Below are positions 12,847 to 36,800 of a stretch of DNA of 64,000 bases, one piece after another (within the stretch, counting starts at the first letter, position 1; the number at the start of each line of letters is the position of its first letter). Under the pieces are notes generated by a model. The model did no database searches, had not been told where the DNA came from, and saw only the letters and a program-made list of their open reading frames with translations. Source of the DNA: Microglena sp. YARC (taxonomy: Eukaryota > Chlorophyta > Chlorophyceae > Chlamydomonadales > Chlamydomonadaceae). The DNA is taken from positions 60,964,979 through 61,028,978 of the forward strand of contig CM039463.1 in NCBI GenBank assembly GCA_022414725.1. The letters run 5' to 3'. Both the position numbers and the translations under genes were made by a program.

Positions 12847-15800
12847 GTAAGCATCCAGGGCGGACATGTTTGAATCTGAGCAACCCACCCCACCTTCCCC
12901 CCCGTCTTTTCCTGATGTTTTCCTTTTCCCCCGCAGATTTCGGGAACTTGCATCCTCTGGTTGAGGAAGCGAGCCTCGAGGACCTGTGCAGATACTTCGG
13001 AGAAAATCAGGCTAAGCTCATCAAGGTAAATATATGTTTCTTATCTTTCTGTCACTATGACTACCACCACTATCACTATCGCCTACCTCATTCGCCATGG
13101 AGCTCGTGCATAAGCATGAGGATGCGACACTAGAACGAACACTCACTACCTGTGCGTTTTTCAATACGTATTTGCTTCGTTTATCTTCCTTTCACCATGA
13201 CCACCACCACTATCACTATCGCCTGCCTCATTCGCCATGGAGCACATGAGTAAGTATGGCACTAGCGGCACGACGGCATCTTTCCCGAGTATATAGAAAA
13301 TTCCGAAAAATGCAAAAGAAGGGTAGGTAATTTCCGCGACTGTCAAGATATTGCCCGGGCTATTTTAGGGGCGTTGGGGGGCTCTCAACAACCTCTGTGC
13401 ATTCCCGTGCAATACCGTGCAATACCGTGCAATACCGTGGCATTCCCTTGCAATACCGTGCATTCCGTGCAATTCGCTGGATATCGTGGGCGGGGGATCG
13501 ACCTTGGAATGTCCGGCTCTTGCGGCGGGGTGTGGTGTGTAGGCTTGCGGCTCGTGCACGAAGTGTGCGAGGGAGCCTCCGTGTTGGTTAGCGGCACGCT
13601 AACTTGTCTGGCTCTTGCTGCGGGTGTGGGTGTGTAGGCTTGCGGCTCGTGCACGAAGTGTGCGAGGGAGACGCCGTGTTGGTTAGCGGTACGCTAACTT
13701 GTCTGGCTGTTGTTGTGTGGGTGTGGTTGTTGTTGTGTGGTTTGTTTTTTCTGTTGGGTTAGCGCAGCTAGCAAAACAGGCAGCTAGCAAAACAGGCAGC
13801 TAACAAAACAGGGGGATGTCCGGTACATTTCCCCGTGGTAGTACCGTGGCAGTACCGTGATTTTGCCATGGATGCTTCGCCTAAGATTCGGGAGGTTACG
13901 CGACACACGCTTCGCATGAAGGCGAATGGATAAGAAAAAATAGTAGTCGTCGGCAGGCCCAGCACAACGTTTACCCCCCCAACGTCCACAGTATGGACCT
14001 TGCCCCACTAGAATTCCAGCCGCGAATCGCCCTACGCTGAAGTGTGAACCTGACTCCGATTAGTAAAACTGTCGTGCGTCGTTTACCCCCCCCCAACGTC
14101 CACAGTATGGACCTTGCCCCCCCCTAGAATTCCAGCCGACCATTAGAGGAAGTCGAGAGGAAGTCAAGAGGAAGTCAAGAGGAAGTCATGAGCGAAGCGA
14201 CTGACTGTTGGTTAGCGGAACGCCGCTACATCATGACTTTGCCTATTCCCTGTGCTACTCTCCCTATCCCGCTAGCTTTAGACAGGATTTTCTCTGCTTC
14301 CGGTGAGAAGCCATGTAACGCACTTCCTACTGATCGTATCCCATCCGCCACGGCACTTTGCCCGAGAATGTCCGCTATCCCCGCTGCGGCGTTAGAGACC
14401 GGTATAGAGAACTGTCCCACCTTCCGAGCTACACCTCCACCGAAATCTGCTACCTTCCTAACCACATTCCCGAAAGTGCCTACAGCCTTACCAACGCCAG
14501 ATTTGAGAGTATTAAAGAATCCCATTAATATACTCTTTGATATTATTTGATGGAAAGTAAAAGCAATTTCTGGTCAATGGATTTCAAAATTGATAAAATA
14601 GAATTAATAGGATCAGTATCAGATTCATAATCTATTCTGAGAGTGATGCTCCAGTCGTAGGGAAAAGGCCCTATAGAGTCTTTATGTTCATCTTTAATGC
14701 TCAAACTCAATTCTGACACATGTGAGGCGCTTATATAGAAAGAAAAGTCGTCTGCTGTATTCTGATAAATGATATTGGCAAAACTTTCAACATTAACTGG
14801 TAGGCGGATCAATACATCACTCTCTTGCTTATTGTTTTGACGAAAATTGTTGACAGCACTGTTAGTTATCTTGGGTAAATTGTGATGGATTGTCAGGAAA
14901 CTTTCAAGATTTAAACGCAATGGAAAGTAGCTAACAATGGGAGCACCACCAGGTGTTTCGTGAGGCAGAAACCCAAACAAATAACTACTTTTATTTTTGA
15001 ATTCGAATGAATACCCTGGCCCAGGAGGGTTGAATATACAAAGCCCGTTTGTTTCATTATGGGTTAGTGTCCTTCCCGTAAGCAACACACCCAATTCTGT
15101 CAGCCAAGAATCAAGGGTATAGTTCCCAATTGGAATTCTGATTGATGTCTTGGTACCATTGTTGTTAACAATAAAGTCATTGTTACTTGCTCTAATCGAA
15201 TAAAAACACCTGTTGATGATGACATCTGCAACTGTGACTTTCGTCCTCCCTCCATAGGGATTTTGCAGGACTCCTGCAGGCAATGATGTTGTGAAATTGT
15301 CAGGCATTCCACTTGTTCGAAACGTGCTTGATATGTACAACAATTGTGTTTTCAAGACAGGTGGATACATTTTATAATATGGGATATATTATACTGTAAC
15401 ATTTTGTATTGTAACCAAGCCATCTAAAACCTCAGTACCAGAAACAGGTTTGATTTTATTCAGCAAGTCTTTCCTGATAGCTTTCTTGTCCCTATAAAAC
15501 AATGGTTTATTGATATGTACAGAAATAGCTACATCTACCAAGTATTCAGGTAGACCAGGAGACATGTCTAAAATTGCAGCTCTGAAGTTTTTGTATTCAT
15601 TCGTTTGCTTGTATTCTTGTGTCAAAGAGGCCATTCTTTAACAATCAGTTAGAAAAATAAAATGTCTTATTGCAGGTTCAGAACAATATCAAAGTTTTTC
15701 TTGAACCTATTTAGTTTGTCTCCTGTGAAATCTATAACAAGAGAGTCATGCTCATCCTGTGTTGCATGTATATACAGCCTCTCAAACTTCTTCAAGGTGA

Positions 15801-18800
15801 GAGTAGAGCTGACTTCATCATGAAGATCTACCAATATTTTGGTTGATGCAAACTTGAATAAAACGAACTATGAAGTATTAGTTCTGATGCTCTTGGGTAT
15901 AGCTTTCAAATTCTGTGAGCAAATCATGATGTTTATACCCAAATGCCTGTTCTTCAAAACCAAGTTTGTCAATGCTGATTTACCCACACTTTTGAATGCA
16001 CTACTACCCACCAGATCATCCAATACAAAATAATTTATTGCACCGTTTGGGTATCTACAAGTAGGCTTTTGGAATGCAGTTCTCTCAAGAAAATCTATCT
16101 CATCAAATGTCAATGCATCTATTTTTCCATTGAAAAACTTTGACCAAACTTGCAAATCTTTCTTGTATTCTGCAGTGTTTTGTTTTTCTTGTTTGATGTC
16201 TTCTATAACTTCTAAAAGATTGGAGTCACTGTAATCATTTACAATATCAGAAGGATCAATCTTCAGACAATTGAATACTGGATTTGCATCATGCGTGGGG
16301 CTAAAAACAATAACTCTCATAGCTTGGTTTTTATCAAAACCCGCAAGCTCATATTGTTTCAATAATTGGCAAACAGAATATGTTTTACCAGTCCCTCGGC
16401 TCCCAATGAAAAGGGCTACAAAGTAGTTGCGTGGCAGGGACGTGTTTAAACATTGTGGGTAAGTGTTTGGCTTATAAACGAGTTTTGTATGAATAAAATT
16501 ACTGACTGCGTTTTCTGTGATATTCATCTATTTTTACAGGACATAATATTTTACTAAAAAGGGCATTGTGACCCAGGGAAGAGTGATTGATAAGCCAGTC
16601 GTTTCCCATCATTCATTATTTTCTGTCTAAACAGTTCAACGGTTTCCTCCTGGCTTATTTTTGGAACTTTTGTAACGTTCAAGCGTTTTTTAATTTGTCT
16701 TGACATCTGTTTCACTTCAACTTCTTCTGATTCTGGCTGGGAATCATCTGTTATCACCTGTTCGTCTTCGTCAGAGTCATCATCACTAACAACAATAGTT
16801 GTCTTCAGTTTCTTATTGACTGCCTTCTTACGAAGTTTCATCTCAGTAGCCTTTTCTTGTTGCTTTACTTGTTTCTCCTGTTTCTGGAGCTGTTTCTCTT
16901 GTCTACTGATTTCTCCTAATTCTTTTCTCTTGGCCCAAGCTTTTTCCCGTGCTCTTGCTAGTACCTCTTTCTGCTTCTCAGACATGACCCTCTTTGCTTT
17001 GGGTTGAATCACTTCCACATCCTCCAAATTGTTACTGAGTTGTTCAATATCCTCCATATATAATTTCAAGTTAGAAAATAATAGAAAAAATTACTGGAAT
17101 TTACAAATGATCACTGGAATTTTGGAACCACAGGAGATGTCCTCAGGATGTATATGGCTTTGGGCTTGTTGGGTAAAGGACGACCCCACAGCAACTCAGT
17201 CTCATGTAACGGTTGTCGGATCATTCTCCTACCTACATAGTTTGTAGCTGGTTGAGCATATTTAATGACTCTATTAGTCCATGTTTCTAGACAGAGAGGT
17301 AGCAAATATTTATCCATTTTATATATTACCTTGTGAAAAAGTATTTCGAGCCGTTTTCACCAGTATCTATCTCCAAAAGAGAGTTGTACTTGACGAATAA
17401 AAGTGAATAGTTCTTCGTGTTGATATTACCAGTGCTGTGAAATGTGATGTTATAGGGTATGTCTTCATCCATTACATCTATTGGTAGACCCAGGGCCCAC
17501 TGACGAGTTGCTAGAGTACTTGCACTTCGTATTAATAGGGTACCATCCTTTGTCAATGTAGTCATGTGTTCCATTGATCTGTTGTCATTGTCAAAAATCA
17601 TGTCCAAGTATTCATTTGCCCTGAAATAGTTTATTGGGTGGTCTGCAACAGGTATATTGTTGACACTAATACCAACATAAACTGGAGCATCATTTGTTAG
17701 AATACTTGGAATGCCATGTGAAAAATAGTAGCTTGTCCCGTTATAGTCTTGGTTGAAGTCTTGGAGTGAAAATCTTCTGTCATGAACGTTGCAATAGCAT
17801 ACTCAATATCCTTGGAAGCAATGTATAAATTAGTTTGTTGGTTTTCGTTTTCATTGAGTTGAAACATGGATGAGAAGTTGTCAAATTCAACACGTTCTGT
17901 GACATTGTCTTGAATTTCACTTCGAACAATAAGGTGTAGATCGGAAATCTCATAGCTTGTTGAATCATTGTCTCTCAACAATACTGCAGCATCTGCCCAA
18001 ACAATACAGATTCGAACCCTGCCTTTGATTACACAGTCCTTGGTACCTAAGATACCATGGAAACGGTCTATAACATATGGCTCATCATCTGACATGGAAA
18101 TTAAATCCACAGCCTGAGCATTACCCAACATATTGGAGGAAGTCGCAGGGGAGTTATGAACAGCCATTAGTCTTGTGAGATGATGATAATTGTTGATGGA
18201 CTGGACCTCAACATCATCAAACGAAACTGATAATGAACTGATTAAGCAATCTATTCCCCTGGGTGCAACACCATCCGAATTAAAAGTGAACAAAAGCTTG
18301 ACACTGGATAAATCCCAAATGCCATCAGTCATTTCAAACACGGTCTGTGTTTGGGGGAAACCTGTTTTTGTTCCTATTGGCTCAATTCTATGGATTTTAG
18401 TAATGTTTTGAGGAAGTGCACTCATTTATATTATTGTTACATTTATAATTATTTGTATTTATAGAACTAATTCGAGCATCCTCCCCGCTCCCACACGGAT
18501 CATGCTACTAAACTCAATAAACACCATTGCAGTCAAGTTGGCTGAGCCTGCTGCTCCACTAACGGCTTGAGACTCGAATGCTCCAATCGAACTTGTCACG
18601 GCTGTATGCGTGCTCCTAAGGATAGGTATGTTACCACTGCAAGGCTGCTCTATATATGTACCGGGTGGAATCAAACCACCTAGCCCCCCCCTGGCAGGGG
18701 TACCACCAAAGGTGTGGGGTCTCTGTATACCTAAGTCGGGATACCGGGGATTGGAGCTTGCAACGGAGGTTTCCGTGGGCCGGTAGCGGTAGAGACTTGG

Positions 18801-21800
18801 AAGACGCAGAGGGTTGATTACCCGAGGTTGTTCTGGACAAGAGTTTGATAGTTGAATGAGTTACAATTTGTTATAGGAACAATAGAAGATAAAACTGCGG
18901 TTTCTAAGTGAACATACATAGCTTGCCGGAAACGGTCGGCAAGGTGGGATTGCAATGCACGACAGGGGTCAAGCGGTGCAAGAGCCTAACATGATTATTC
19001 ATGATGCGTGACAGTCGTATTGGATTGTCGTGACGGGTTGGTGTCACGACAAGGCCAACACTTACTGCAAGGGGTAGCAAGTAGCGCCTAGCAGTGACCT
19101 ATCATGAAGTGATATCCCGACGCACCTGGACAAGAGTTTGATAGTTGAATGAGAGAGAATCGGTCGTCTCAATCGACTTATCAACTCTTCTGTCCTTTAG
19201 GGTATGATCGTAACTATGGTTTTGCATGTGCTGGCGAAAGGAGTTATGCTACGGCACTGCATTGTTATGTCTCGTGTTATCACAAGTGCCTGATAACAGT
19301 ATCGTGTTATCACAAGCGTCAGCTAATTAATTACTTAATAAATTAATTGGTATGTGTAACCGAGAAACCCTAGGTAGCTGTGGGTAGCTGGCCACGGCTA
19401 CGGCGGGTCGACTCTGCCAGATCTGGGCTACCTGGGCATGCGCTGGCGAGAGGAGTTATGCTACGGCACTGCATTGTTATGTCTCGTGTTAAGACAAGTG
19501 CCATATAACAGTCTCGTGTTATTAACAGCGTCAGCTAATTAATTACTTAATTAATTAATTGGTATGTGTAACCGAGTAATCCCAGGTAGCTGGCCACGGC
19601 TACGGCGGGTTGACTCAGCCAGATCTGGGCTACCTGGGCTCAGGTCTGGTCGAAGTCCGCTCTTGGTGTGTGTGTGTGTTGACAGGGTATTTCCCCTGCT
19701 TTTAGTGTTACGTAGGTAAACACGCAATCGCGTGTGACAGCTGTCACGGCTGTATGCGTGCTCCTAAGGATAGGTATGTTACCACTGCAATTCCCCCCCT
19801 TCACTACGGAATGGGAGTGAGTGTAGTGAAAAAAGAGAAGTGGTAACGGGAAGAGGTGATTGTAATTCTGTAAGAGAAAAAAAATCTGGAAATCTCTCCT
19901 TCCCCCCCCGTGCTGCTGGTATCGAGCAGATGAGGTTGATGTTGCTGGTTACACAAAAAGGTATGTACAGGTGTATCCATTCTGGTGTTGGAGTATGGTA
20001 AAGCAGGACGCACCACCTAGTTCCCCCCCCCTCTGCACGGAGTGAAGAATAAAAGGTAGGTGGTGGTTATGTCGGAACGGAAAGGAACTAAAGCCACGTC
20101 TATTACTTAAAGAGGTAAAACCTTGAGAGTCAACAAAGATCAAGTATGGGACCGGCCGAATAAATCTGGAGGCATGTGATACAGTGGCCAGTAGAAAAAA
20201 TCGTGGTGTCCAAGTTGAAAGAAGTTGATGTAACTGGGCGAAAATCCTCATCTGGTCATATTGCAAGTGCTGACTGTCCCTCCTAGAGGCTTCCAGTCAG
20301 CAACCCAGTGTTGGCTGCAAACTTGTTTTGAAGTAAGTTTGGGATCGTGTTGCGTATATGTAACGCAACTCGGAACATGAAGCAAGAAAAACAAAAAGAA
20401 CCCCAGAACTGTTGCGATCACTGGGACGTGTATTGTCCCAGGAATGAAGACGTATGTCCTCTGCACCCCCCCCTCCCGCATGGATTAACAAACAAACATG
20501 ACAACCTGTGGGCTAGTCGTAACTGGTCCATCACAGGCACAAGGCATGTCTGGGTTATGCAAGCTGCCTGTCTGCTACACAGCCTGCATAACCAAACCAG
20601 ACGGTGGGTATGGTGGGTTGTGTAAGAGTGTGTCTAGACCACTGGAACATGAGTGTTGTGTGGGGTGATGTATTCCATAAATCGAGGACGCATTGCCATG
20701 TAGTAGATGGGAGGGGGGTTGGAAGCAAAGTCCAGGAAGGCTGAGGGGGGGTGGGCGCCATAGGTTGTTAAACCTGACCCTTGGTCCATGTGTGGTGGCA
20801 TGTAGACCATGTGAGTCAGGTGGGTCCAGCGTTCAACGTCAGGTAGGCGACGAGTGAAATATGGTACATGCACTGGGTATGGGTATGCTCCATTAATGCG
20901 CCTGGTTTCCTCTACCCTGTTGAAAATTGTGATCAGGTCAGCTTGCTGGTGGTGCCAGGCAGCTTGGAGGAAGTGAATGCGTGTAGTGTACTGTTGGACA
21001 GATTCAGTGGGGAGTTGAAGGACATGGCCTTGGGGGTTATCGAGGTCACCATAGTAGCATGGGCCAAGACAGAGTAAATCATCTGCGAGGGGTGGTTGGC
21101 CATTGTATCGCTGTGCCCAATGGGATGTGAAATTTGGTGCGTAACGGGGCAAGCAGTCCTATGTGAGTGCATGGGTGCTGTCACGATATTCTGCAGTGTT
21201 AACCATCACCTGAGGTAGGAGGGAATGTAAGGAGTTGAGGTGAGCAATAGTGTGCTCATGTGTGGTACACTTCACAGGATGGGTTGTCCTCAGACGCCAG
21301 GATGGTGTGCGTTGGATGCCTGCATGCACGGTTGAGGCAGGGGAGCACAGGTGTGAGTGGTAAGGGCTTCTGTGTGCCTGTGGGGAGTGGGTTAAGTTTT
21401 TTTAGTCCAGCCATGGTGAGCTTAATGACTTGGCCGTCATCGTAGGTTAGCTTGAAGTACCATGGCCTGGACAGTGGTCCTTGGAAGGAGGCAGTGCCCC
21501 AGACAGCTTTGTCGAGGCCGCCTTGGACTCTGACTTGTTTGATGACAAGCATCTTGTCGCAGGCGAGGGCGGCTCTGTCTCTGGAGCGAGTCTGCGGGGT
21601 GGGGAAAAGGTTAGGTTCCTTCTGTGGTGCTTCTGGGATGCGTCCCGCGGGGATTGCAGTGATGCCGCTGGCTTTGCAGTTGGGGCAGAACCAGTCCTCG
21701 ACGGGAACTGCAGAGAGAGGTGGGTCAAGGCAGTGAGTGTGGTAACCTGCTCCACAGCCGTCGCAGAGTAGCATGCAATTTGCGTTGTCAGGGAAGTTGC

Positions 21801-24800
21801 AGACGCTGCAGGCTAGGCTGGGGGGTGGGACTGCTAAGTCTGGCCTGATTGTGCCATCCAAGTTAGGGAGGTGGCAAGGAGACAAATTGCGGGCATGGTT
21901 GGTGATGGTACAACCGCAACGTCCTTGCAAGACGACGACTTCAGATGGTTTGAGGTCGATGATGCGCACGATCATGCCTTGGGCAGCCATCTGCAAGGAG
22001 TTGCGCACGTTGGGACGGCGGATGTACACAAAGTCTCCCACCTGGAATTTGCGTAGGCGAGGGTGATAGGCCCCCCCCCTGATCTTTGCGTAGCGCAGGG
22101 TGTCCCTGTGGTGGGCGATTGCTATGTGATTGGCAATAGTAGGGCTGACTCTCTTGATCCATTGAGCGCGCTCCAGGAGAGTGTCTGTCAGAGCTTGCAC
22201 CTGTGTGCTGTCTGTCAGGTCAGGCAGCGGCGCTGTCATGGCAAGCTGTGCCTCAGGGTTGTTCATGACGGGAGCCCGGGCGTACACCAGAGTGAAGGGG
22301 GCGCACTTAGTAGTCTCCTGAGGGCTACAGTCGTACGCTGTAACGACCTTGGCTATGTCAATGTCCCATGTGTCAGTGGCCAGGTTTTCAGAGCAGATCT
22401 TGGTCAAGGCTGCCTTGATGGTACCGACGCTTCGCTCCACAAAACCGTTGCCCTGAGGGTGGTTAGGGTGGATCGTCCTGTGGTCAATGAAGTTGTGAAG
22501 CAGATGTTCCTTGAATTTGCCTTGGAACTCTGGTCCATTGTCAGAGATGCAGAGCGTGTATGCGCCAAAGTGTGCCAAGACTCCATGAGAGTGCGCGTAT
22601 ACCGTATGTATGGCCTCCTTGGCTGGGATGGGGACCACTACGCGTGCGGCGCTGAAATACTCCACGGCGTGCATGAGCATAGTGTTGCCCCTGGCTGTCT
22701 TGTTGTAGGGACCAGACAAATCAATTCCCCAAGCGAAGAAGAGGCCATGAATCGGGTGAGATTGCAATGTGGCTGTTGGCTGGTTGAAGTAGGCCATGGC
22801 TTGGTCACAGATCTTGCATGTCTTGACCAGGGCTTTGACTTGTTTGACCACGCCGTGCCACCAGAAAGAGCTGACCTCTAAGTAAGCTGTTCTGCGTGCC
22901 CCAAAGTGTCCGCTGGTCTCGTGGGCCCTCTGAATGAGGATGGACCTCTGGCTGGGGGCTGGGACGATGCGTTCAATGCCGTTGGCCAGGATGCGTATGA
23001 TCCTCTCTTCTCCAGTTGGAGATGCGCCGAGCCTGTACTTTCTTGACCTTGCCAGTACCCGCCTAGTACGAGATGTCGTCCAGTTGGATCCGAGGACTCC
23101 TCGCCTCAAGTACTCTAAGACAAACTGATCAGAGTGGATGTCTAGACCGTCAGTGTCCTTGGACATTGCAGCAAGGCGCAGGTCAGTATCCAACTGTCTG
23201 CCTGGGGCGAGTGGAGGACTTGGAGCTGAAGATGGTAGAAGAGGCAAAGGAGGGGAGTGTTGCAACGGCTGAGGGTCGGTGGCTGTTGGCCGGTGGCTGT
23301 TGGCTGTTGGCTGGGGGCTGTTGGCTGATGGCTGGTGGCTGTTGGCTGTTGGCTGGTGCAGGTGGTTTTGATGGCCAGATGTGTGGCTTGACAGCCTTGC
23401 TCCTGGTGACTGCCAGCAGGCAAGCAAGCTCAGTGCCATAGAACTGGCGTGTCGGAGGCGTGGGGTCTGATATGCGACCGCCAGAATTGCTGGGATAGCT
23501 GGGAGAAGTTGTCAGAAGAAGAGCAGGGCTGAAAGAAGGTAGCAACTCAGGTCTGGGGGGTGGCTGAAATTCTAGCATAGATGTCAGACGTGTAGGGATT
23601 GCCATTTCCAAGGTCTTTCTGATGATTGCTACCAAGGCTCGCTGATCCATGCTGTTGCCTGTGAGGATATGCCTCTGGTTTTGAGTGAGGCCTGGTGCTG
23701 CTGTTGCTCCTGTGTAGTATCCGAGCATGCGTTCTCTCTCAGAAGGGTTTGGTTCAGACCATGCGCCGCCCTGGAGAGAGTAGATGCTGCCTGGCTTGTC
23801 AGGTCTGAAGGCTCGAGACAGAGGGTACGCTACTAGAGTAGGCAGTACGTTGCGCTCTTGTCCGATCTTGTTTGCTAAGCAAAAGGGGGCTGTGTCTGAT
23901 ATGTAGACCCTTGTAGTGCTCCGTCCTGGATCCAAGAAGGCGTTGGCTGAAATGTTGGCAGTCCGACGGGTCTTGTTGAGCTGGAGCTGGAGATGAAGGG
24001 GGTCAACCAAGTTCTGCCACTTGTTGCGGAGTCTGTGCGCTCCTGAGTCGAATGTTGCAGCATCCACGCAGATAGGGAGGCCAAGAGTTCTGTTGACTGC
24101 GTTGAAGTCTTGCGTAGCAATATGTTGTGATCGGAAGTTGTGCTGCATTGCTGCATTCTCCACGATGTAGAGGGGTTGCCGAGGATGCTGTAGCTGCTGG
24201 ATGTACCCTATGACGGTGGTACAAGCCTGCAGGACGGCGGCCCGTGGTCCCTTGAGTCCTCTGTTGCCTCCTGCCGGGCTGAAGTCTTGGCACTCTGGAC
24301 CGGCTATGATGAGCCACTGTGATTGGTCGTTCACAGCTGCGGCCATGAGCTGTTCTGGTGTGATCTTGGTCACATCCTGGGGCAGCGTCGTGAAGGCATG
24401 GTCGCAGGCGTATGACTTGAGCAGATGGGGGTAGAGGTTGGTCAAAGCTTGTGTCCTATAGCGGGCGACTGTCTGAGCAGCGGGCGCAATGTCGCTGTAG
24501 ATATACCTGTTAACTTGGATGCCATTGCGCAGTGCTGCTTCCAATCCTGCACACATTCCCCCGCACATCTCGTATAGAGTGATGCCATTCTGGGCCATGT
24601 ATGTGACGGCGGCAGGCAAGGGTGTTGTGCAGATGGATAAGACAGATCTGACGTCAAGGACGTAGTCCACGATGTGCCCTAGTGTCAAGTCTAGGGGCAC
24701 ATAAGGGGTGGTGGGCACTGTTGGAAATGCCGCGTATAGGTCGCTGTCCAGGTCAATGCGAGCGCCAGTGTTGTCCTCTGCAGTGGGCTGGGAAACCTAG

Positions 24801-27800
24801 ACAGTGCGTCAGCGTTGCCATGCTGTGCACCTGGTCTGTGCATGATGTCAAAATCAAATGACTGCAGCATGCATGCCCATCGAGCGATGGCACCGGTGAC
24901 GTTGGCAGAGGAGAACATCCACAGCAGAGGCTGGTGATCAGTGACCAGTGTGAAATGTAGTCCGAAGACATATACTCGAAAGATCTTGCAAGCCCAGCAA
25001 GCAGCCAGCATTTCTCCTTTGAAGCTGCTGTACCCTGCTTCATGCTTGTTAAGGCTGCGGCTGGCACAGGCGACGAGGTATTCGTTACCTTCCGACTCGA
25101 GCTAGCCGAGCACTGCTCCTAATCCATGTTGGCTCCAGTCACAGTGGATGAGGGTGCGCGCGTTGATGACAAAGCGTCGCAAAACCTTGCCTGGTGTGCT
25201 GATATTCCTCCTAATGGCGTCCATGGCTGCTGTGTGCTCAGGTCCCCAAGTCCACTTGACATCGTTCTTGGTGAGGTCATTGAGGGGTCTGGCTATGGCT
25301 GAAAAGTTTTCACAAAAACAACCGTAGTAGCGCAGCTTACCCAGGATGGTCTTGAGGTCCTTGAGGTTGCTTGGGTAGGGCAGGTCCTTGATAGCTTGGA
25401 CTTTGGCTGCTTGCGGGGTGAGACCATGGTTGCTGACATCGAAGCCTAAGAAATCGACCGCGTCGAGTGCGAAGCAGGACTTGTCAGGGTGTATGCGGAG
25501 GCCAATGTCGATGAGACACTGTAGTACTGCTTCCACGTCCTTGATGTGATCAGCAAAGGTGGCGCTGTGGACCAGAATGTCATCAATGAAAACCTTGCTG
25601 AACTTGAGGAGACCACGTTTGCCCAACTCAGTTTCCATGACCTTCTGGAAGTAAGCTGGTGCTTGTTTCAGTCCGAAGGGCACACGCTTGAACCTGTAGA
25701 GCTGCTTGTCCCACCAAAAGGCTGAGAAATCTTGGCAGCCGGCAGACAAGTGGACTTGGTAGAAGCCCGAGCGCAGGTCTACTCGTGTAAACCACTTGGA
25801 GTCACCCAGGTCTTGGAATAATTCCTCTGCAATTGGGAAACCTGTGTGCATGTCTTTGGTCAGGAGGTTGATGGCCTTGTAGTTGTAGCACACTCTGTTT
25901 GCAGTGTACTGGCCATCAGGTCCTTTCTTCAAGGCGACGACAGGATTTGCTGCATGCTGAGCTGAAGGAGCTGGCTCTATGAAGCCTAGCAGGAGCAATT
26001 CAGCGCAGACTTTGTCTTGAGCAAGTTTTTCTATAGGTGGCTTGCGGTAGGGACTAGTGAATGCCTGCTTGTCGTTGTCCTTCTCTATGTGCATAGGGGG
26101 CACAATCCCTTTGTAGCCCTCTCTCAAATCCTCCATAGTCCGCGCTACTGCTGGGGTCATTCTGTTGAGCATGGCTGCCATCTCTTTGCGTTGCGCCTCA
26201 GTGCCATCTTGATGATGACCGATGAAGAGGTCACAGTCTGGATGTAGGGCCCCTCTATGTGCATTGGGTGTGACCGCTCCGTCTGGCATACTGTTGTTAA
26301 TCCCCCCCTCCTGCAGATAGTTGGGGTCCATATGACTGAGGCAGCTAGTAAGGCCTCCTTGTAGGCGGCCAGGCAGGAGTGAAGCTGGAGTGGGAGGGTC
26401 CAGGTGCACAGGGAAAGCGCAAGAAGTGGACGCTTGGTAAACTGCTGCTTGGCCTTCCAGGAACTCTTGACCTGGTCGCCAGTAGACATCATCCAGCTGC
26501 GTCGTGAAGAAGTCTTGGGGTTCTTCATAGTCGTCACCGGCTGGGGTGGATGAGGTAGGAGATGGAGTGCTGGCCATTGTGAGCAAGTAATCAGCAGGGG
26601 TGAGGTGGGGCAATGATGAGAGCGAGGAGCAGAGGTGGCTGCAGCGTCTCACTCGAAGTCATCCTCATTGTTGTAGATGGGTGACCTCCCAGCTTGAAGG
26701 TTGGACATACCCTAGTTCTCGGCGGCGGCCTAGCATGGAGGGAGCTGCTTGGTTCGAGATACTGGCCTGAATGGCAAGTCCACGGTCAAAGCGCGACCTG
26801 TGGCAGTATGCTCTGCGCTGGACAAGTGGAGGAAAGGGCGCAATGTGAGTTTCTCTTGCGAAATGTCAGGTAAGGCAGAAATGCCTGGCATGGCCATTAG
26901 TGGGGTACCGATGAGGGCATCGAAGATGGTGTTGTCAGGGGCAATGACAAAAGTTGATCTCGTTGGGGGTGCCGCTGCAAAAAATGACGGGCATTTGAAT
27001 CTCCTTTGTGAGGGAGCTTTTGATGTCATTGAACGCAATCGTCTTGTGGTGGCATGGGAGAGGATCGTATCCTAATGAGTCTGCCATAGATTGCGAGATG
27101 AAGTTGAGACCACTGCCGGTGTCGACGAGGACCATGAGGTTGACGCACTGCAGGAGGCCAGTTGCGGACGTAAACGAGAGGCCTGTCTGGTGGGACCGGT
27201 TGGCCAGGTACGGTACACCGTAGCTGGGCTCTGTTCCTTGCAGCAAGGTTGCTGTAGAAGGGCTCAGCTGGCCAGAAGCAGTGTAGTCGCGTACAAATGT
27301 GTCCACTGGGTTGTGTGTGACACAAGCTGCGCGCTGGGCTGTTTCAACCGCTGTTGCTCTGACCTGCAAGGCCCTGTTGAACTCGTGCAGGTTCTGCACT
27401 TCTCTGAACAGCAAATCAAGATCCCGTCGCAAGACTGTCATCTCATCCATGAGGAGGTCTTGTGATGCCCGATGCTGGGCTTGGGTGACGTGCTGTGATA
27501 CTCGAGCGCGTGGTAGGGGAATGGCAGCTGTTGACCCAGTTCCATCAGTGGAAGGATTGAATGTGGGCTTGTAGATTGCCTGTGAGCTAGCCTGTGTCTC
27601 TGCCTCTGGAGTCTGTCGGAAGCTGACTACTAGGGCTGCATTATACCAGTCAGGTTCTTGTAGATCAGATTGCGCAGCTTGTGGAGCCTCTAGTTGTAGT
27701 GGCTGGTTGCCGCGGCTGTGTTGATCATGGGGGTGTGGGGCATGTCGTCCGCCGGAGGGTTGCAAACGAAGTTCCTCACGAATGGCGAAGACGGTATCAT

Positions 27801-30800
27801 GCAACTGCTGGTTATGTTGTTGCTGCTGCAACTGCATCTGCCGATTGTGTTGTTGTTGTTGCAATTGCATGACGACGTCTGGTCGTTGGTGCTGCTGCAT
27901 GCTGTTGTTGTTAGTGCCTCTTGTCTGCCCTTGGTAGTTGCTTTGAGTGCCCTGGTTGTTTTCCTGGTAACCCGCTTGATATCCACCCTGGGTGCCTTGG
28001 TTGTTGCCTTGGTAGCCACCTTGATACCCGCCACCAGTTCCTCCCATGCTTCTCTGGTTGTTGTTCCCTGGGTTGCCTGCTGGAAAGGGTCGTGGGTTCT
28101 TCCCCTTGTACCTGAGGTTCTGAGGGGGTAGGGAGGATTGCTGTTGCACTGGAGTCTGTGGCTGTCTGTACTGCTGTGCAGGGGGGTTATGCATTTGTGT
28201 ATGCGGGCTGTGTTGTACAGCTCCCTGCACTGAGCGGAAGTAAGGCACTCCAGATTTGAGCTGGTCCAAAGGTGGTGGTGGGGCGAAGCCTTGCTGGATT
28301 GTTGAGGTGCGCCAGATGGCGTACCGTGCTGGGTTCTTTGGGCACCAGGATGGGTTGGGGGTCCCAAGGTTGTTCAGGTAGCAAGTGTCGGAACCGTGTC
28401 CAGTGATGTTGCATGTGGTGCAAACTGTGGAAGACTTGGGTTCACCGTTCTTGCCCTTGGGTGCACTGGGGTCCTGGGTGACGGGAAAAGCAGGCGTCTG
28501 GCGTGGCATGACAGTTGGCCTCTGTGTTTGGTGGTTTGGAGACACAGAGCAGCATGCCTTGTGCTGTCATATCGTCTCTCTTGGATGCTTCAGTTTGGGC
28601 AATGCCAGACAGCCTTTCCAGGGTGTGCTGATCTTGGTCAAGCTTGTAGAGCTTGGCGATTGCACAGCAACCGAGGGGGGTGACATCCTTGTAGCTGCCA
28701 AAGTTCTCCTTCAGGGTGGGGGCCATGCGATCAAGTAGTTTGGCCACCTTGGCCATGGCCTCCCGGTAATGGGGCTGTCCAGCCCGGATATCAAACTCCT
28801 CGTCCTTCTTTGTGAATTCTGACATCAAGATGCGAGGCATGGGGTATAGGAGGCCTGCATTGTCGTAGCAGTCAAACTTCTCATACTCCTCTTTGGCATC
28901 GAGAGGGGTGACCTTGAGTGCGAGTGCTAGTCCAGTTTTGACCAGGTCGTAGAAATGAAGGAGCTTCAGCTTCCAAGTGGCTGGGTTCATGATTGGTTGA
29001 CCATGCTCGTTGATTTGGAGGACTCCATTCAAGGAGCTTTGTGTCTGGAGAGCATTGCACTCCTGGATCCACGCGGCTCTGTTGTTTGTAAACAAGACGA
29101 ATGGTTGAGAGTTCTCATAGACCTGTACCATCATCTGTTCCCACAACTCCTCCACTGCAAGGTCTCTCTTGATGTTGAAAATGTAGCTCTTCATCATCAG
29201 AAGCCAGGCTTTGGTATGTGATACGCTGCCGCCGTGTAGCTGTGATCCTTCTGTTGGAAGTTGCCATGATAGGACGGAACCGACACCGATCATGAGTGCG
29301 ACGTGACGTTCGCTGTCATTGCTATCAGCGTCGCTCACATCCCCTTGAAAGTCTGGTGGAGGTGGGCCCTCATCTTCTTCAGGAGGTGGGGGTGGTTCAT
29401 CGTCAGAGTCTGGTGGGCTGGGGGGTTGGCCTCCCGGTTGATCAGGTGGTCCTCCAGTATCTGCCTCATCATCGGGGACACCGTCACTGTCAGAAGAACT
29501 GGCAGGATCACCCTGGATTACCCCCTGGTCCATGCGGTGACTGGCTGGGGTGGGATCCACTGTTGTCGGAGGAGCTGCTTGACCCGTTGCCGGAAGGTTG
29601 GCTTGCAGGAAGCTGGTTGGCTGGTGAGGGTTCTGGAAGCTGTCGGGGAGTGTGGGCAAGTCGTTTGCTGGGGCTTTCTACTTCCTCTTCTGAGCTGAAA
29701 AGGGTGTTCGTGGTCATGTGTGGAGGACCTGCTGCTTGTGTCGCAGTTGCGCCAGTGAAGGTCTCCCGAGGGGTTATAAATTCCTGCAGGGGGACTGTGC
29801 ACTGGCGGCTGGGACGGAGTGGCAGACGGTCGCTGGACTGGGGACAATGGTGGGTACGCATTGTCCTCAGCATCCTCACTCACGGCAACACGAGAAGGCG
29901 GGGTGTTCAGCAATGGCCGTTGTGAGCTTCCAAGGGCTAGGCGCATTCCACTCTGCCCGCTCCAAGGCTTGAGTGGTGTGGGTGATGGCTGAAGGGCTGA
30001 TGGAGGCCTTAGTGCCGGTAGAGTTACACAGAATTGTCTTTTGGAGGTGCCTGGTAGCTGCGCGATCTGGGCTGGGGGCTGGGGGCTGATAGTAGAAGGC
30101 TGGGGGTCGAGGGTTGAAGGCTGGAGGCTGATAGCGGAAGGCTGGGGGTCGAGGGTTGAAGGCTGGGGGCTGATAGCGGAAGGCTGGGGGACGAGAGGTG
30201 AAGGCTGGGGGCTGATAGGGTCAGCTGCTGTGGCTGAGGCTGGTAAGGTGGTGGCAAGTGCCATAGGAAGGGGGATGTCGATCTCCGATGACTCCCCCTC
30301 GTACCAGGGGTGGCTGCCCCCCAGTGGGAGGGGTGAGTTGGGGATCGTTAGGGGGATGGTTGGGGGAAGTATGTTGATGGGGTTATGCAGATGCAGTTGT
30401 GCTATTTGATTTGTGATGGAATGTTCAGAATAAGTGTTACTTATGTCTGAGAGGGCTTGTCGGGCGTCTGATTGAGCTTGTGCTTGATCAGCTGCGTCTG
30501 AGCGCGCTTCTGCTTCTGCAGCAGCTCTGACTTGTCCTCGTGTTCCTCGCATTGTGTGTTGTGTTAGTTGTTCAGGGGTGGGTTTGTTCCACGTGTTTAT
30601 CAAGGCTTGTGTCCTGACGTGTACCTGAAGGAATGTGTATGTTGGTAGAGCAGCCTTGCAGTGGTAACATACCTATCCTGGTACCCCTGCCACAGGGGGG
30701 GGGCTAGGTGGTTCGATTCCACCCGGTACATATATACCGCTGATGAGAGGAGAACATCAACTCAGTACATTTGAGTGCCTTCATGGTAGACAACCTTTTC

Positions 30801-33800
30801 GGCCCTGGCAGGGGTACCAAAGGTGTGGGGTCTCTGTATACCTAAGTCGGGATACCGGGGATTGGAGCTTGCAACGGAGGTTTCCGTGGGCCGGTAGCGG
30901 TAGAGACTTGGAAGACGCAGAGGGTTGATTACCCGAGGTTGTTCTGGACAAGAGTTTGATAGTTGAATGAGTTACAATTTGTTCTAGGAACAAAAGAAGA
31001 TAAAACTGCGGTTTCTAAGTGAACATACATAGCTTGCCGGAAACGGTCGGCAAGGTGGGATTGCAATGCACGACAGGGGTCAAGCGGTGCAAGAGCCTAA
31101 CATGATTATTCATGATGCGTGACAGTCGTATTGGATTGTCGTGACGGGTTGGTGTCACGACAAGGCCAACACTTACTGCAAGGGGTAGCAAGTAGCGCCT
31201 AGCAGTGACCTATCATGAAGTGATATCCCGACGCACCTGGACAAGAGTTTGATAGTTGAATGAGAGAGAATCGGTCGTCTCAATCGACTTATCAACTCTT
31301 CTGTCCTTTAGGGTATGATCGTAACTATGGTTTTGCATGTGCTGGCGAAAGGAGTTATGCTACGGCACTGCATTGTTATGTCTCGTGTTATCACAAGTGC
31401 CTGATAACAGTATCGTGTTATCACAAGCGTCAGCTAATTAATTACTTAATTAATTAATTGGTATGTGTAACCGAGAAACCCTAGGTAGCTGTGGGTAGCT
31501 GGCCACGGCTACGGCGGGTCGACTCTGCCAGATCTGGGCTACCTGGGCATGCGCTGGCGGGAGGAGTTATGCTACGGCACTGCATTGTTATGTCTCGTGT
31601 TAAGACAAGTGCCATATAACAGTCTCGTGTTATTACCAGCGTCAGCTAATTAATTACTTAATTAATTAATTGGTATGTGTAACCGAGTAATCCCAGGTAG
31701 CTGGCCACGGCTACGGCGGGTCGACTCAGCCAGATCTGGGCTACCTGGGCTCAGGTCTGGTCGAAGTCCGCTCTTGGTGTGTGTGTGTGTTGACAGGGTA
31801 TTTCCCCTGCTTTTAGTGTTACGTAGGTAAACACGCAATCGCGTGTGACAAACTGTTCCCTCTTGTGTCAATGCCCGACATGAACTGATCATCATTGTGG
31901 CAGAACTTGCATGAGAGAACAAAGAATTTATCACGCCAGCTTGCAAATGAATCACAAAGGGGACTTGACCCTCCTAGGGTGTCCTGTAATTGGTTGTAAG
32001 AACTTTGTGTTAACGAAAAACACTGTCCAACATTGGCCCTAAAATCTGGATAATAAGTCCCATTGATAGTGAACTGAGCACTTTCCATCCCAGTCGCTTT
32101 CCTGACGAACGTGTTACAGTTTTTGGTCACAGCATCCAATGCTCCAGTAGGTGATTGGTCTAAAAACAATCCCCAAGCTCGATTAACCGACTGGGACGAC
32201 ACACTAAATTTGGTGGACTGGCTATAACTTGATGCAGCTGATGAAAATGAAAAATAGTTCTTGAACATGATTTCATACACACCTCCATTTTGCAGAAAGG
32301 CATTGTGTGCGGCATCAAAGAGCCCATCATCTATTGAGATAGTATCCACACTGAATGAAATATCTGATAGAATAAATTGTCCTCCCCCAATTAGACAATT
32401 GGATCCATCTAGCTGTATCCTAAGGCGAACCTGCCCTAGGAGTTTTGTATCCAATATGCTGGGCTGAAAGCTATTGAGAGTCAGCCAATTACAAATGCAA
32501 TAATCTTTTGGAATACCAATGGGAATAGCTGAACCATCACCTCCTGATTGGATAATCTTACGTTTGTTGTGGCAATCTGCACCAAAGGATGTATCAGCAA
32601 TAATATTAAAAAGCTGATTATAATTGGAGAACCCTCCTATCACTTGCCCATTCACTTCCAAGTCGCACCTTTGTATGATTGATTCAATTTTCCTTGGCAT
32701 GCCCCCAGTATATGTGATTGCTTTGAAACTCATTATCAGGCTATCAGTATCTATCAAAGTGTTGGAAGGCATGTCGACTGTAATCACACCATTGTTGGTT
32801 GCCGAAGTACTATTAAGGGTGGACAACCGTTCAGTTGCTCTACTATAGTTAGAGATCCGTTTTGTAATGTACTGGAGGTTTTTTGGGTATGCAGACATTT
32901 AGTTTATATTTTGATAATAATCAAAGTTTATTTTTCAGATAATTATAGATATCTATATAATGATTTTTGGTTCTCCGTTTGTCAAGTAGTCTTTGTAATC
33001 CAGGCTCATTAGAACGTTCTTGGTATTCGGTTGCAATTGCAAGCACCTCCCTCTTAGATTGGCCACTTGAATCTGGTGATGCGTGCCTGAAGTCAAATCT
33101 ATCAAGTGACCGCCTCAAATCATACCGTTTTTTAGGTGCTGCATAATTGGCATTAGACGGAGATGGTCGAGAGGAAGGTGGTCTAGGTAAGTGGTCTATA
33201 TACGTCCTAGTTCCTTGAAACACATTTTGTGGTGCAGTGTTTTGTTGAGTCATGGCAGCCCTCGCAGATCTAGCAAGCTGTTCTACAGCAGATACCCCAT
33301 TTACAGCCTGAGCTATCATATTTTGATGGGGTTGTTTGGGGATCTCTATCACATATGCATAAGGGTTGAATCCCATCATTCGAGGGAGTGTCCTATCAGC
33401 AGGTAATTTAACATTAATTGTTGTTGCTCTTTGGTTGGTAGTATTCCCTCTTTGTTTGATTGTATTTGTTTTTGTTTTTGTTTTTGTTTTCCCCACATTT
33501 TTTCTGGACCTCATGGTTTAAATTATGTTATAATTAATGTACAACACCTCTCAGTATATATTTGCTCAGCCCAGAGACACCAAAAAGATCACCAACAGTT
33601 TTTCAGGAGACTATAACGCACTTATAAACAAGCCCCCTTATTTTCAGGGTCTTACAATGATCTTACAGACCAATTGAATGTACAAAACGCTTTTTGTTGC
33701 TATTGGTCCCGGAGTGAAGGTGAGTCGTCTTGAACTACCAACGCAGACTGGAGCCAATTGGGCCCTGGTTTGATTCACTTTGCAGACACAGGGTCGGAGA

Positions 33801-36800
33801 TTAATGGGAGCATATCTTTCTTGAGCGATGGGGGTAGTGAATCATTCAATTTCCTCTTCGAATTCATGACCAAAGCTAGGATTGACCAGACGGGATCATA
33901 CATTAACCTTTCTGACAAGTCATATAAAAATCAGATTGAATACCTCAACCCTGAGGAGTCATTGAAGGCGATCAAATCTTTGCAGCCGGCAAAATACACG
34001 TTCAAGGGAGATGCTAAAAATGCAGTGGAAATTGGGCTGTATGCCCAAGAAGTGATAGGCGTTTGTCCAGAAGCTGTGAGATTCCTAGACTCAGACAAAG
34101 AGAGATTGGGTCTCAATTACAACTCCCTTGTACCACATCTAATTGGTGCAATAAGGGCTTTATCAGTCGAGGTTGATGACCTAAAGAAACAATTGAAGAA
34201 TGAACGGTATAAGAATGACCCAGAATACCGTGCACAACGAAATGAACGTTCGCGGATTTATAAATGCAAAATTGAAGGAACGGAAGGCTATGTTGAAGGC
34301 AGAGTCTGTGTAAGTGAATTAAAAATAAAATTGAATCATACTTAAGAATCTTGAGCATATTATATACTACAAGTATAATAAGATGAGCGAATCTTGCATC
34401 AAAGTTCACACTTATTCTAGTGAAATCCACAAGACGAAAATGAAAGAAGACCCTGAATATCGTGCTTATGTAAATAATCTCGCCAGACTTGCAACTATAA
34501 AACGGTATCAAACAGACGAGGCATATCGTGAGAGGCAACAAGCATATACCAGGAACAGGTACCAAAATGATCCTGAATTTCGCGAAAAACGAAATGAACG
34601 TGCAAGACTATATCATGCAAAAAAAAGAGAAGAAAAAAAGGCGTTATTATTGGCAGAAACTGTCGGAGTATAGAGTTTCATTTAAAAATTGAAATGCACA
34701 TTATTTTTTTGAGTATTTTAAGTAAGACGCTTGAGAGATTGTTCATATATTAATATATAACAGAATTATAATGGCATCACAACAAACTTTGGCAAAATGG
34801 TACAAAAAGCATTTGGTAGCAGCAGGAGAAGCTCCACGCAGGATTACTAAAAAGTATGTGATCGAACAGGGTCACGAATCAGTAGAAGAGTTCTATAATG
34901 CTGTGGAATGGTACAAGAACTACATGGAAGAAGAAGCAAAAAAGGTTAGGAGGGAAAAAAAGGCAGAATATGATAAAGAACGCTACCAAAAAAAACGCTC
35001 CCAAAAGGTTAGTCGAATTCGAGCTTTTCAATCAGGCCAGCAACACTTTGTATGTGTATAGATGTATTTCTATCACAAACGCTTTTCGTCCTTTAAAGGA
35101 TTTCGGCCCAGACACATTGTTGGTTTTGGCCGAAATTAACCAAGACAAATATACCAAAAAAACTGAAGAGGGAGAGTATGTGTCTAATACTTTAGCTGGG
35201 AAAAACAAATTTTTCACAGGATATGCAGAACTACTGAACAGACTTGACATTGACGACCCAAGTATGGGAGCTTTGTTAACAAGACTCATATCACAATCCC
35301 TGGCAATAAAAATTACCTCCAACGAACCTGTGAATAATACAGTTGATAGGCCGTTCTTGTACAGGACTATCAGGGATAACATAAATACTGTTTATACAGA
35401 ATGTAAGTTCATACGATTTGAGTGGGACAATGAAGGAGATAGCTTACAAACAAGTATAAAAAGGACCAGGAATCGGAATTTACCCAACGGAGCATGTGCA
35501 ATTGAAGCGATTCTAAATGGTTTTCAGCCAGCATTCGACTCCTATAACAAGAAATTGAAGTATCATAAACATACAATCACATTTGAATCAATTTATTGGG
35601 ATATATTCGAAAAAGAATATGACGGAGTGTCTGACATTGACAGGACAGTCGAGGATTATTTGAAGTGGTTCAAGAAGAATGGTTTTGGAGCAGAAATATA
35701 CGACAACGAAAACAGGGTAGTATGTAAATGTGAGCCACCACCTGAGGAGCAAACAAAAACATACAGTATCCAGAAACTACGTGTCATATATTGGCATGAA
35801 CATGTGCAGAACATAGACGAAGTGATGTCTTTTGCCAAGACAACTAAGAAGGACATATACTCTCACCCATCATCCAACTTTGTAGTGCCAAAAGTCAAAA
35901 AGGTTACAGCAGACATGTATCACTTGGCAAACAAATACGAAGACATATTCCCAATTATTAAAGCTGGAATGGAAGCATCAAAAAAGGACATCAGAATCAT
36001 CTACAACGGAGATATGAAAGAAGTTCTGTTAAACTTAGTTCAAAAAGAAGGATGTGACCCCAAGCCGATCATGCAAACTGGACATATTATTTCACGGTTA
36101 GATTTGAACCACATCGTGACAAAGGACGGCAAACCTATAGCCATCTCAGTTGAGAATGCATCTCAAGTGCAAGGTTTTTCAAAGTGTCCAATTCTAGACA
36201 TAGACACGTTTGTAGACTACAAGAACCTGGAATCAGAAGTGAAGGGATCGTTTCTAAGTAATAAATTTAAATCCGAGATGAGCATTGAAGCCAGTGAGGC
36301 TTTCAAAACATGTTTAGATCGAGTACCAATGGGCAGGCTTGTTGACAAAGATCTGTCTACCACAGATCTTGACGAGATTACAGCGCTTGATATCAATAAG
36401 CATTACTTTACTTGCATATGGATGTTGGTTGATGGACCAGGGTTCCCAGTTATAAATTCATGGGATATATTCTACACATACATAGATGATAAACCACTAA
36501 ATGAAGCAAAAATCACGACTAAGAAACAAAAGGTTGTGGAATATGATGACCCGTTTCAAAACAACTTCACGCAAACAACACTTGATTCTCAGGGCGGAAT
36601 AGTTAAAAGGAAACCGTTCAACAAAGGATACCTGTATCTCATCAGAATAGATGAAGAACGCCCCATTTACAACCAGGATAAAATGCTCATTTATGGATAC
36701 GAAGTTGTGCAATTGAAATTCAAATGCACAATATTGGCATATCTGCGAGTTGAGTGGAAGAAGTGTAGGTACCTAGCAACTATATTAAAACAGTGTTTGG

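What the first reader, a model, noticed from the sequence alone, without database searches (positions are those of the whole stretch)
18594..31850. Gypsy retrotransposon carrying its own DNA methyltransferase plus PHD and Tudor-like readers
Between RNase H and integrase lies a C5-DNA methyltransferase with motifs I, IV (PECQ), VI (ENA), VIII, IX and X recognisable, and the integrase ends in a PHD finger and a Tudor-like segment. One element thus combines a chromatin writer and two reader-type modules. DNMT capture by retrotransposons has been described in dinoflagellates and charophytes (de Mendoza and colleagues, 2018); the combination with a PHD-tailed integrase, and its presence inside a viral genome, may be new. 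It could methylate its own new copies and choose integration sites.
Basis: partly seen in the sequence, partly recalled or inferred. Interest (0 to 1): 0.9.

Follow-up and report, generated by a model that had tools for sequence, protein, structure and literature searches.

The report
Retrotransposon carrying a DNMT3-type methyltransferase
A young jumping element, probably in a green alga, encodes inside its copying-and-pasting polyprotein a DNA-methylating domain and a histone-reading finger, and it belongs to a large, mostly unlabelled family that extends a kind described so far from one charophyte alga and from dinoflagellates.

Summary
A 13,257-bp Gypsy-type retroelement (18594-31850, minus strand) carries a C5-DNA methyltransferase between RNase H and a DDE integrase that ends in a PHD finger. 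Profile and predicted fold place the enzyme nearest DNMT3A/B. The repeats are not ordinary LTRs: they are split, A-coding-B-A-B, with TG...CA ends and a 4-bp target duplication, the layout published for KnitGypsy-Dnmt3 of Klebsormidium (2018). Joining the flanks re-opens a capsid-like ORF; the element sits in a PLV-like insertion with inverted repeats 26-27 kb apart. The copy is young (0.6% between A repeats) but broken at three places; an intact relative exists. RT-DNMT-INT-PHD recurs in 48 of 51 polyproteins holding RT, DNMT and INT, Haematococcus and Chlamydomonas eustigma among them. DNMT is as conserved as RT and INT and co-inherited with them. Odd: the residue before the catalytic cysteine is not proline in 68 of 80. 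So: a new variant of a known kind, wider than reported. Methylating its own cDNA and reading target chromatin is the likeliest role, untested. The 'Tudor-like' end is a confident predicted fold without a family match. Copies elsewhere in the genome could not be searched.

The parts
18594..31850 (-). whole retroelement, 13,257 bp, TG...CA ends
18590..18593 (.). target-site duplication, left copy (4 bp)
   Evidence: identical to 31851-31854
31851..31854 (.). target-site duplication, right copy (4 bp)
30803..31850 (-). A1, 5' copy of the long direct repeat
   Evidence: 1042 identical positions, 6 substitutions, 3 gap columns against A2
18689..19739 (-). A2, inner 3' copy of the long direct repeat
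19742..19790 (-). B1, inner copy of the 49-bp repeat; the B1/A2 junction reads GTGACA-GC-TGTCAC, like the two element ends joined
18594..18642 (-). B2, outer copy of the 49-bp repeat, 3' end of the element
   Evidence: identical to B1
18651..18691 (.). tRNA-like block, inverted copy of 30696-30736; 18619-18652 / 30646-30679 form a second inverted pair
   Evidence: tRNA likeness read by eye; ARAGORN and Rfam find nothing
28442..29677 (-). gag-like ORF (open frame in gag position, no family match)
26935..28566 (-). ORF with CCHC knuckle (by eye) and aspartyl protease (weak Pfam match)
25102..26658 (-). reverse transcriptase and start of RNase H; ends in a stop not present in the intact relative
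24691..25101 (-). rest of RNase H
   Evidence: by comparison with P0063
23183..24796 (-). ORF with DNMT3-type C5-methyltransferase (domain 23615-24589; motif IV 24278-24301)
21256..23511 (-). ORF with H2C2 and DDE integrase (21841-23160), PHD finger (21673-21816), C-terminal domain
21397..21597 (-). conserved C-terminal SH3/Tudor-like fold (predicted, unassigned)
13242..40547 (.). PLV-like element, bounded by inverted repeats within 13242-14227 and 40044-40547, that the retroelement interrupts
15868..16527 (-). A32-like packaging ATPase of the PLV-like element
   Evidence: Pox_A32 E 5.6e-4, under its cut-off; terminase phrog_2666 E 3.6e-7
31851..32898 (-). capsid-like ORF cut by the insertion (join at codon 348 of 392 when the flanks are joined)
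   Evidence: the capsid label is by eye, no database match

Best explanation
A recently inserted Gypsy-type retrotransposon of a family known from green algae and metagenomes, whose pol polyprotein is RT-RNaseH-DNMT3-integrase-PHD-(SH3/Tudor-like), with split A-B-A-B repeats. Shown: domain order, conservation, DNMT3-type fold, ends, 4-bp duplication, insertion into a PLV-like element. Inferred: the polyprotein is cut or acts as a whole in the particle; the DNMT methylates the new cDNA (or the DNA at the insertion site) on cytosine, so that the copy enters the genome already marked; the PHD, most like fingers solved with histone H3 tails, steers the integrase complex to chromatin. This would be a parallel to host DNMT3A, whose ADD domain also reads unmodified H3K4 (recalled). 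The inner B1-A2 junction, which equals the two ends joined, serves as template for remaking complete ends.
Confidence: 0.6

Rival explanations
1. The DNMT domain no longer methylates DNA; it has been kept as a SAM/nucleic-acid-binding or structural part of the polyprotein, or methylates RNA (genomic RNA or the tRNA primer).
For: Residue before the catalytic Cys is not Pro in 68 of 80 and switches between Pro and other at least 6 times on the RT+INT tree and 5 on the DNMT tree; KnitGypsy-Dnmt3 gave no methylation in yeast; the authors suggest RNA as substrate for SymbioLINE-Dnmt.
Against: Catalytic Cys, the motif VI Glu and Arg255 of motif VIII are each 80 of 80; 12 of 80 keep the PC; the nearest fold is DNMT3A/B.
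Confidence: 0.25
2. The DNMT serves the host or dampens the element: the insertion is methylated and silenced, which lowers the cost of the element.
For: CHH/CHG methylation on KnitGypsy-Dnmt3 copies and the authors' own suggestion; low CpG observed/expected in the element body and to its right.
Against: Host DNMTs could do the same: the window's genome has 123 other PF00145 matches (some may themselves be mobile). Selection on a selfish element for its own silencing is hard to sustain (inference).
Confidence: 0.15
3. Chance fusion: a host DNMT gene trapped once in this copy, not part of the element.
For: The copy is frame-broken on both sides of the DNMT.
Against: Same place and order in 51 polyproteins and in the 99% identical intact P0063.
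Confidence: 0.01
4. Ordinary LTR retrotransposon; the 95 bp beyond A2 are a rearrangement of this copy, not a split-repeat architecture.
For: Only one copy could be examined at DNA level; the A-repeat edges carry extra tRNA-like inverted blocks.
Against: The A-B-A-B reading gives TG...CA ends, a 4-bp duplication and re-opens the target ORF; same layout in print for K. nitens.
Confidence: 0.1

Closest known systems
KnitGypsy-Dnmt3, Klebsormidium nitens (de Mendoza et al. 2018, PMC5890265)
   Same: Gypsy domain set with a Dnmt3-related DNMT inside the pol ORF and repeats laid out as in DIRS elements (A-coding-B-A-B)
   Different: PHD, Tudor and chlorophyte do not occur in the main text (figures and supplements not seen); described as an independent acquisition in the K. 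nitens lineage; its sequence was not among my hits, so kinship is untested
SymbioDIRS-Dnmt3, Symbiodinium (same paper)
   Same: Dnmt3-type DNMT in pol, A-B-A-B repeats
   Different: DIRS reverse transcriptase and tyrosine recombinase; here Gypsy RT and a DDE integrase with a 4-bp duplication
Gypsy insert in PLVA of Cymbomonas tetramitiformis (PMC10675990)
   Same: Ty3/Gypsy element between capsid genes of an integrated PLV
   Different: Chromodomain, Chlamyvir-related; the word methyltransferase does not occur in the paper's main text; 39-kb element with a 16-kb insert (about 23 kb without it) against about 14 kb with a 13.3-kb insert here
DNMT3A/DNMT3B catalytic domain
   Same: nearest by profile and fold; AHRxRxxWxNL region
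   Different: Glu before the catalytic Cys; fused to a retroelement pol

Membership tests
Gypsy-Dnmt3 retroelements (KnitGypsy-Dnmt3 kind) | Gypsy RT, RNase H and DDE integrase | tested here: met
   best PDB match of the family profile is Ty3 Gag-Pol
Gypsy-Dnmt3 retroelements (KnitGypsy-Dnmt3 kind) | Dnmt3-type DNMT in the pol ORF | tested here: met
   intact pol P0063
Gypsy-Dnmt3 retroelements (KnitGypsy-Dnmt3 kind) | A-coding-B-A-B repeats | tested here: met
   (this one copy)
Gypsy-Dnmt3 retroelements (KnitGypsy-Dnmt3 kind) | phylogenetic grouping with the K. nitens elements | not testable with these tools
   no hit named Klebsormidium; supplements not readable
DIRS retroelements | tyrosine recombinase instead of DDE integrase | tested here: not met
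   H2C2 + integrase core, 4-bp duplication
Chromoviruses | chromodomain at the integrase end | tested here: inconclusive
   no chromodomain hit in the window ORF at E up to 0.1, PHD instead; P0117 has a PHD and a Chromo hit under its cut-off
DNMT3 | PC dipeptide in motif IV (as recalled) | tested here: not met
   GPEC in the window; Pro in 12 of 80 relatives
DNMT3 | catalytic Cys, motif VI Glu, motif VIII Arg | tested here: met
   Cys, Glu, Arg255 each 80 of 80, Arg257 79 of 80
Tudor | match to a Tudor family or structure | tested here: inconclusive
   PTM_DIR17_Tudor only E 0.16 at best, 2 of 12 members; the fold list barely covers this part
Polinton-like virus (the interrupted element) | TIRs, A32 ATPase, capsid genes, polymerase | tested here: inconclusive
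   TIRs and ATPase found; capsid and polymerase labels by eye only (no matches in 38, 96, 97, 122, 123)

The most novel reading that the evidence does not exclude
A single ancient clade of Gypsy retroelements, spread through green algae and perhaps beyond, has carried a DNMT3-type writer together with a PHD histone reader in one polyprotein since before the chlorophyte classes split; in chlorophytes, where one survey found no DNMT3 (MMETSP green algae), the DNMT3 type survives chiefly inside these elements, with a recurrently altered catalytic loop (EC/SC for PC) and in some branches a second, Dam-like methyltransferase at the C-terminus.
Probability: 0.4. Interest if true: 0.82.

Novelty: new variant of a known kind. 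Interest (0 to 1): 0.62.

Why it matters
DNMT capture by retroelements was reported from two lineages, dinoflagellates and a charophyte. Here it is a widespread architecture that includes three named chlorophytes (Haematococcus lacustris, Chlamydomonas eustigma, Cymbomonas tetramitiformis; lineages; for Cymbomonas only a DNMT-containing protein was seen) and that routine labelling mostly misses: 17 of the 88 proteins carry the Pfam DNMT label, and the PF00145 search of the window's own genome does not list this place (counts are lower bounds). It makes testable whether transposons methylate their own cDNA, what the element gains, and whether a writer-reader pair guides integration.

Tried and rejected
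Ordinary LTR reading: set aside, since the A-B-A-B reading alone gave TG...CA ends with a target duplication. tRNA gene in the inverted block: ARAGORN and Rfam find none and the fold is no better than shuffles. Tudor assignment: no significant sequence match. Second C-terminal MTase of relatives (28 of 142 proteins; 21 of the 60 with full DNMT, INT and PHD): no match in the window pieces; Pfam D12 E 0.005, under the cut-off. Relatives in viral contigs (PLV genes 97, 121) and genome contigs: none by these patterns. Phage records: five weak DNMT matches, none for two PLV proteins. CpG depletion as a sign of self-methylation: not specific. A phylogeny against DNMT1/3/5 and K. nitens was not made, for want of reference sequences. 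Papers: searches listed no paper on DNMT-bearing Gypsy elements of chlorophytes; that is absence from this open-licence library under these terms only. Of the papers I saw: PMC5890265 abstract, sections 9, 10, 11 and passages; PMC10675990 section 6 and passages; PMC12344493 section 5 and passages; PMC9998398 passages; all others search listings only. Motif numbers, the usual PC, the ADD parallel, tRNA likeness, the DRM identity of 4onj and the PLV capsid/polymerase likeness are recalled or by eye.

Rows dropped: the 80 are proteins whose DNMT match covers at least 85% of the model, out of 110 with any DNMT match among 142 session proteins; many of the other 30 are EukProt gene models or partial proteins with DNMT fragments. 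The 51 need more than 100 (RT), 200 (DNMT) and 200 (INT) model positions. Trees use 44 proteins with at least 85% of RT, DNMT and INT, plus the window; P0046 and P0059 were added to the RT+INT tree only. Trees are quick ones with many weak branches; a careful DNMT tree keeps the window in the same sets of 3 and 15 rows.

Full report
What is there. On the minus strand a retroelement runs from 31850 to 18594. Its pieces, by Pfam, are an aspartyl protease region (weak), RT, RNase H, a C5-DNMT-like domain, H2C2 zinc finger with integrase core, and a PHD finger. Pfam scores the DNMT below its cut-off in this copy (18.8 against 22 bits). The pol frame is broken at three places (a stop within the RT/RNase H stretch, and a change of frame before and after the DNMT), while the DNMT domain itself is uninterrupted. 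An intact relative, P0063 (1768 aa, on a public contig of 13,922 bp), is 99% identical over RT+INT and over the DNMT, and reads RT-RNaseH-DNMT-INT-PHD in one frame. So the DNMT is part of pol.

Ends. Repeat A (30803-31850 and 18689-19739) differs by 6 substitutions over 1048 aligned positions and 3 gap columns, a young insertion. Repeat B (49 bp) stands at the outer end (18594-18642) and again just inside A2 (19742-19790), identical. The element therefore reads, in its own sense, A1-coding-B1-A2-B2. Its ends are TGTCAC...GTGACA, flanked by the same four bases on both sides (18590-18593, 31851-31854). Joining the flanks re-opens one 392-codon ORF with the join at codon 348, 44 codons beyond it. 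The inner B1-A2 junction equals the two outer ends joined with two bases between. This is the layout that de Mendoza et al. describe for SymbioDIRS-Dnmt3 and, with Gypsy domains, for KnitGypsy-Dnmt3. It suggests that the inner junction is the template from which complete ends are remade before a DDE integrase inserts the DNA; that is inference.

Setting. The target lies in a region bounded by inverted repeats (within 13242-14227 and 40044-40547), with an A32-like ATPase; without the insert it measures about 14 kb. The ORF that is cut looks like a PLV capsid protein by eye only; no database confirmed it. The window lies in a 568-Mb assembly of 2390 contigs. Near-identical relatives come from one EukProt gene set without a species name; the named relatives are chlorophytes, and the one Cymbomonas protein is only 31% identical to the window's DNMT. 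A green alga is thus likely, not shown. A Gypsy insert between PLV capsid genes is in print for Cymbomonas, with different sizes and a chromodomain.

The family. An alignment search returned 88 proteins, among them Haematococcus lacustris (P0090, P0091), Chlamydomonas eustigma (P0117, P0132) and Cymbomonas (P0139); 17 of 88 carry the Pfam DNMT label. Where RT, DNMT and INT are all present in good length, the order is RT-DNMT-INT-PHD in 48 of 51 and RT-DNMT-INT in 3 of 51. Over 45 rows the DNMT is as conserved as RT and INT (0.463, 0.440, 0.445) and its tree distances follow theirs (r = 0.72; 0 of 2000 permutations), though only 17 of 42 splits agree. This is what lasting co-inheritance under purifying selection at protein level looks like; codon-level tests were not possible. 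P0046 lacks the DNMT, so loss or prior absence occurs. Several EukProt models of the window's lineage hold only a DNMT fragment, probably through predicted introns.

Literature. de Mendoza 2018 reported Dnmt3-Gypsy elements in one charophyte as an independent acquisition, and de novo CG methylation in yeast for SymbioDIRS-Dnmt3, with none for KnitGypsy-Dnmt3, called inconclusive. A 2025 survey names streptophytes and dinoflagellates for retrotransposon DNMT3 and finds DRM in streptophytes only. A 2023 survey found no DNMT3 in green algae of MMETSP. The present family adds chlorophytes and, as far as the text shows, the PHD tail. That it is one clade with the Klebsormidium element is my guess, untested.

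Verdict. Real, well bounded, and of a published kind, extended in host range, domain content and catalytic loop. Most likely it marks its own DNA and reads target chromatin; neither step is shown.

Noticed in passing
P0037, P0041, P0042, P0046, P0079, P0082, P0083, P0088, P0103 and others (C-termini): A second methyltransferase-like domain (best preserved as DPxxGxG ... TSPWF) follows the PHD in 28 of 142 session proteins; weak likeness to D12/N6-N4 MTases; in several the motifs are lost.
   Followed up: partly
P0040, P0083, P0088, P0104: A G-patch domain is labelled in some relatives; in P0083 it lies between DNMT and integrase.
   Followed up: no
window 52700-62000: About 9 kb of a ~166-bp satellite with strong AT skew; further arrays of 144, 118 and 50 bp at 42.9-45.6 kb.
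   Followed up: no
G000 genome-wide: PF00145 gives 123 matches in the window's genome, many in open frames of 300-450 aa; the eight loci fetched have no tblastn match at 1e-4 to the element's RT, DNMT or INT.
   Followed up: partly
window 34886-40042, + strand: Genes on the other side of the PLV-like element: a 760-aa protein (DNA-polymerase-like by eye only), SF1 helicase-like pieces (AAA_30 E 1e-6, UvrD_C_2 E 0.007), endonuclease VII-like (phrog_1035 E 7e-5).
   Followed up: partly
window 30646-30736 and 18619-18691: tRNA-like sequence (GGTTCGATTCC, primer-binding-site-like in the sense strand, by eye) present as an inverted pair near the two ends of the element, 98-100% complementary.
   Followed up: partly
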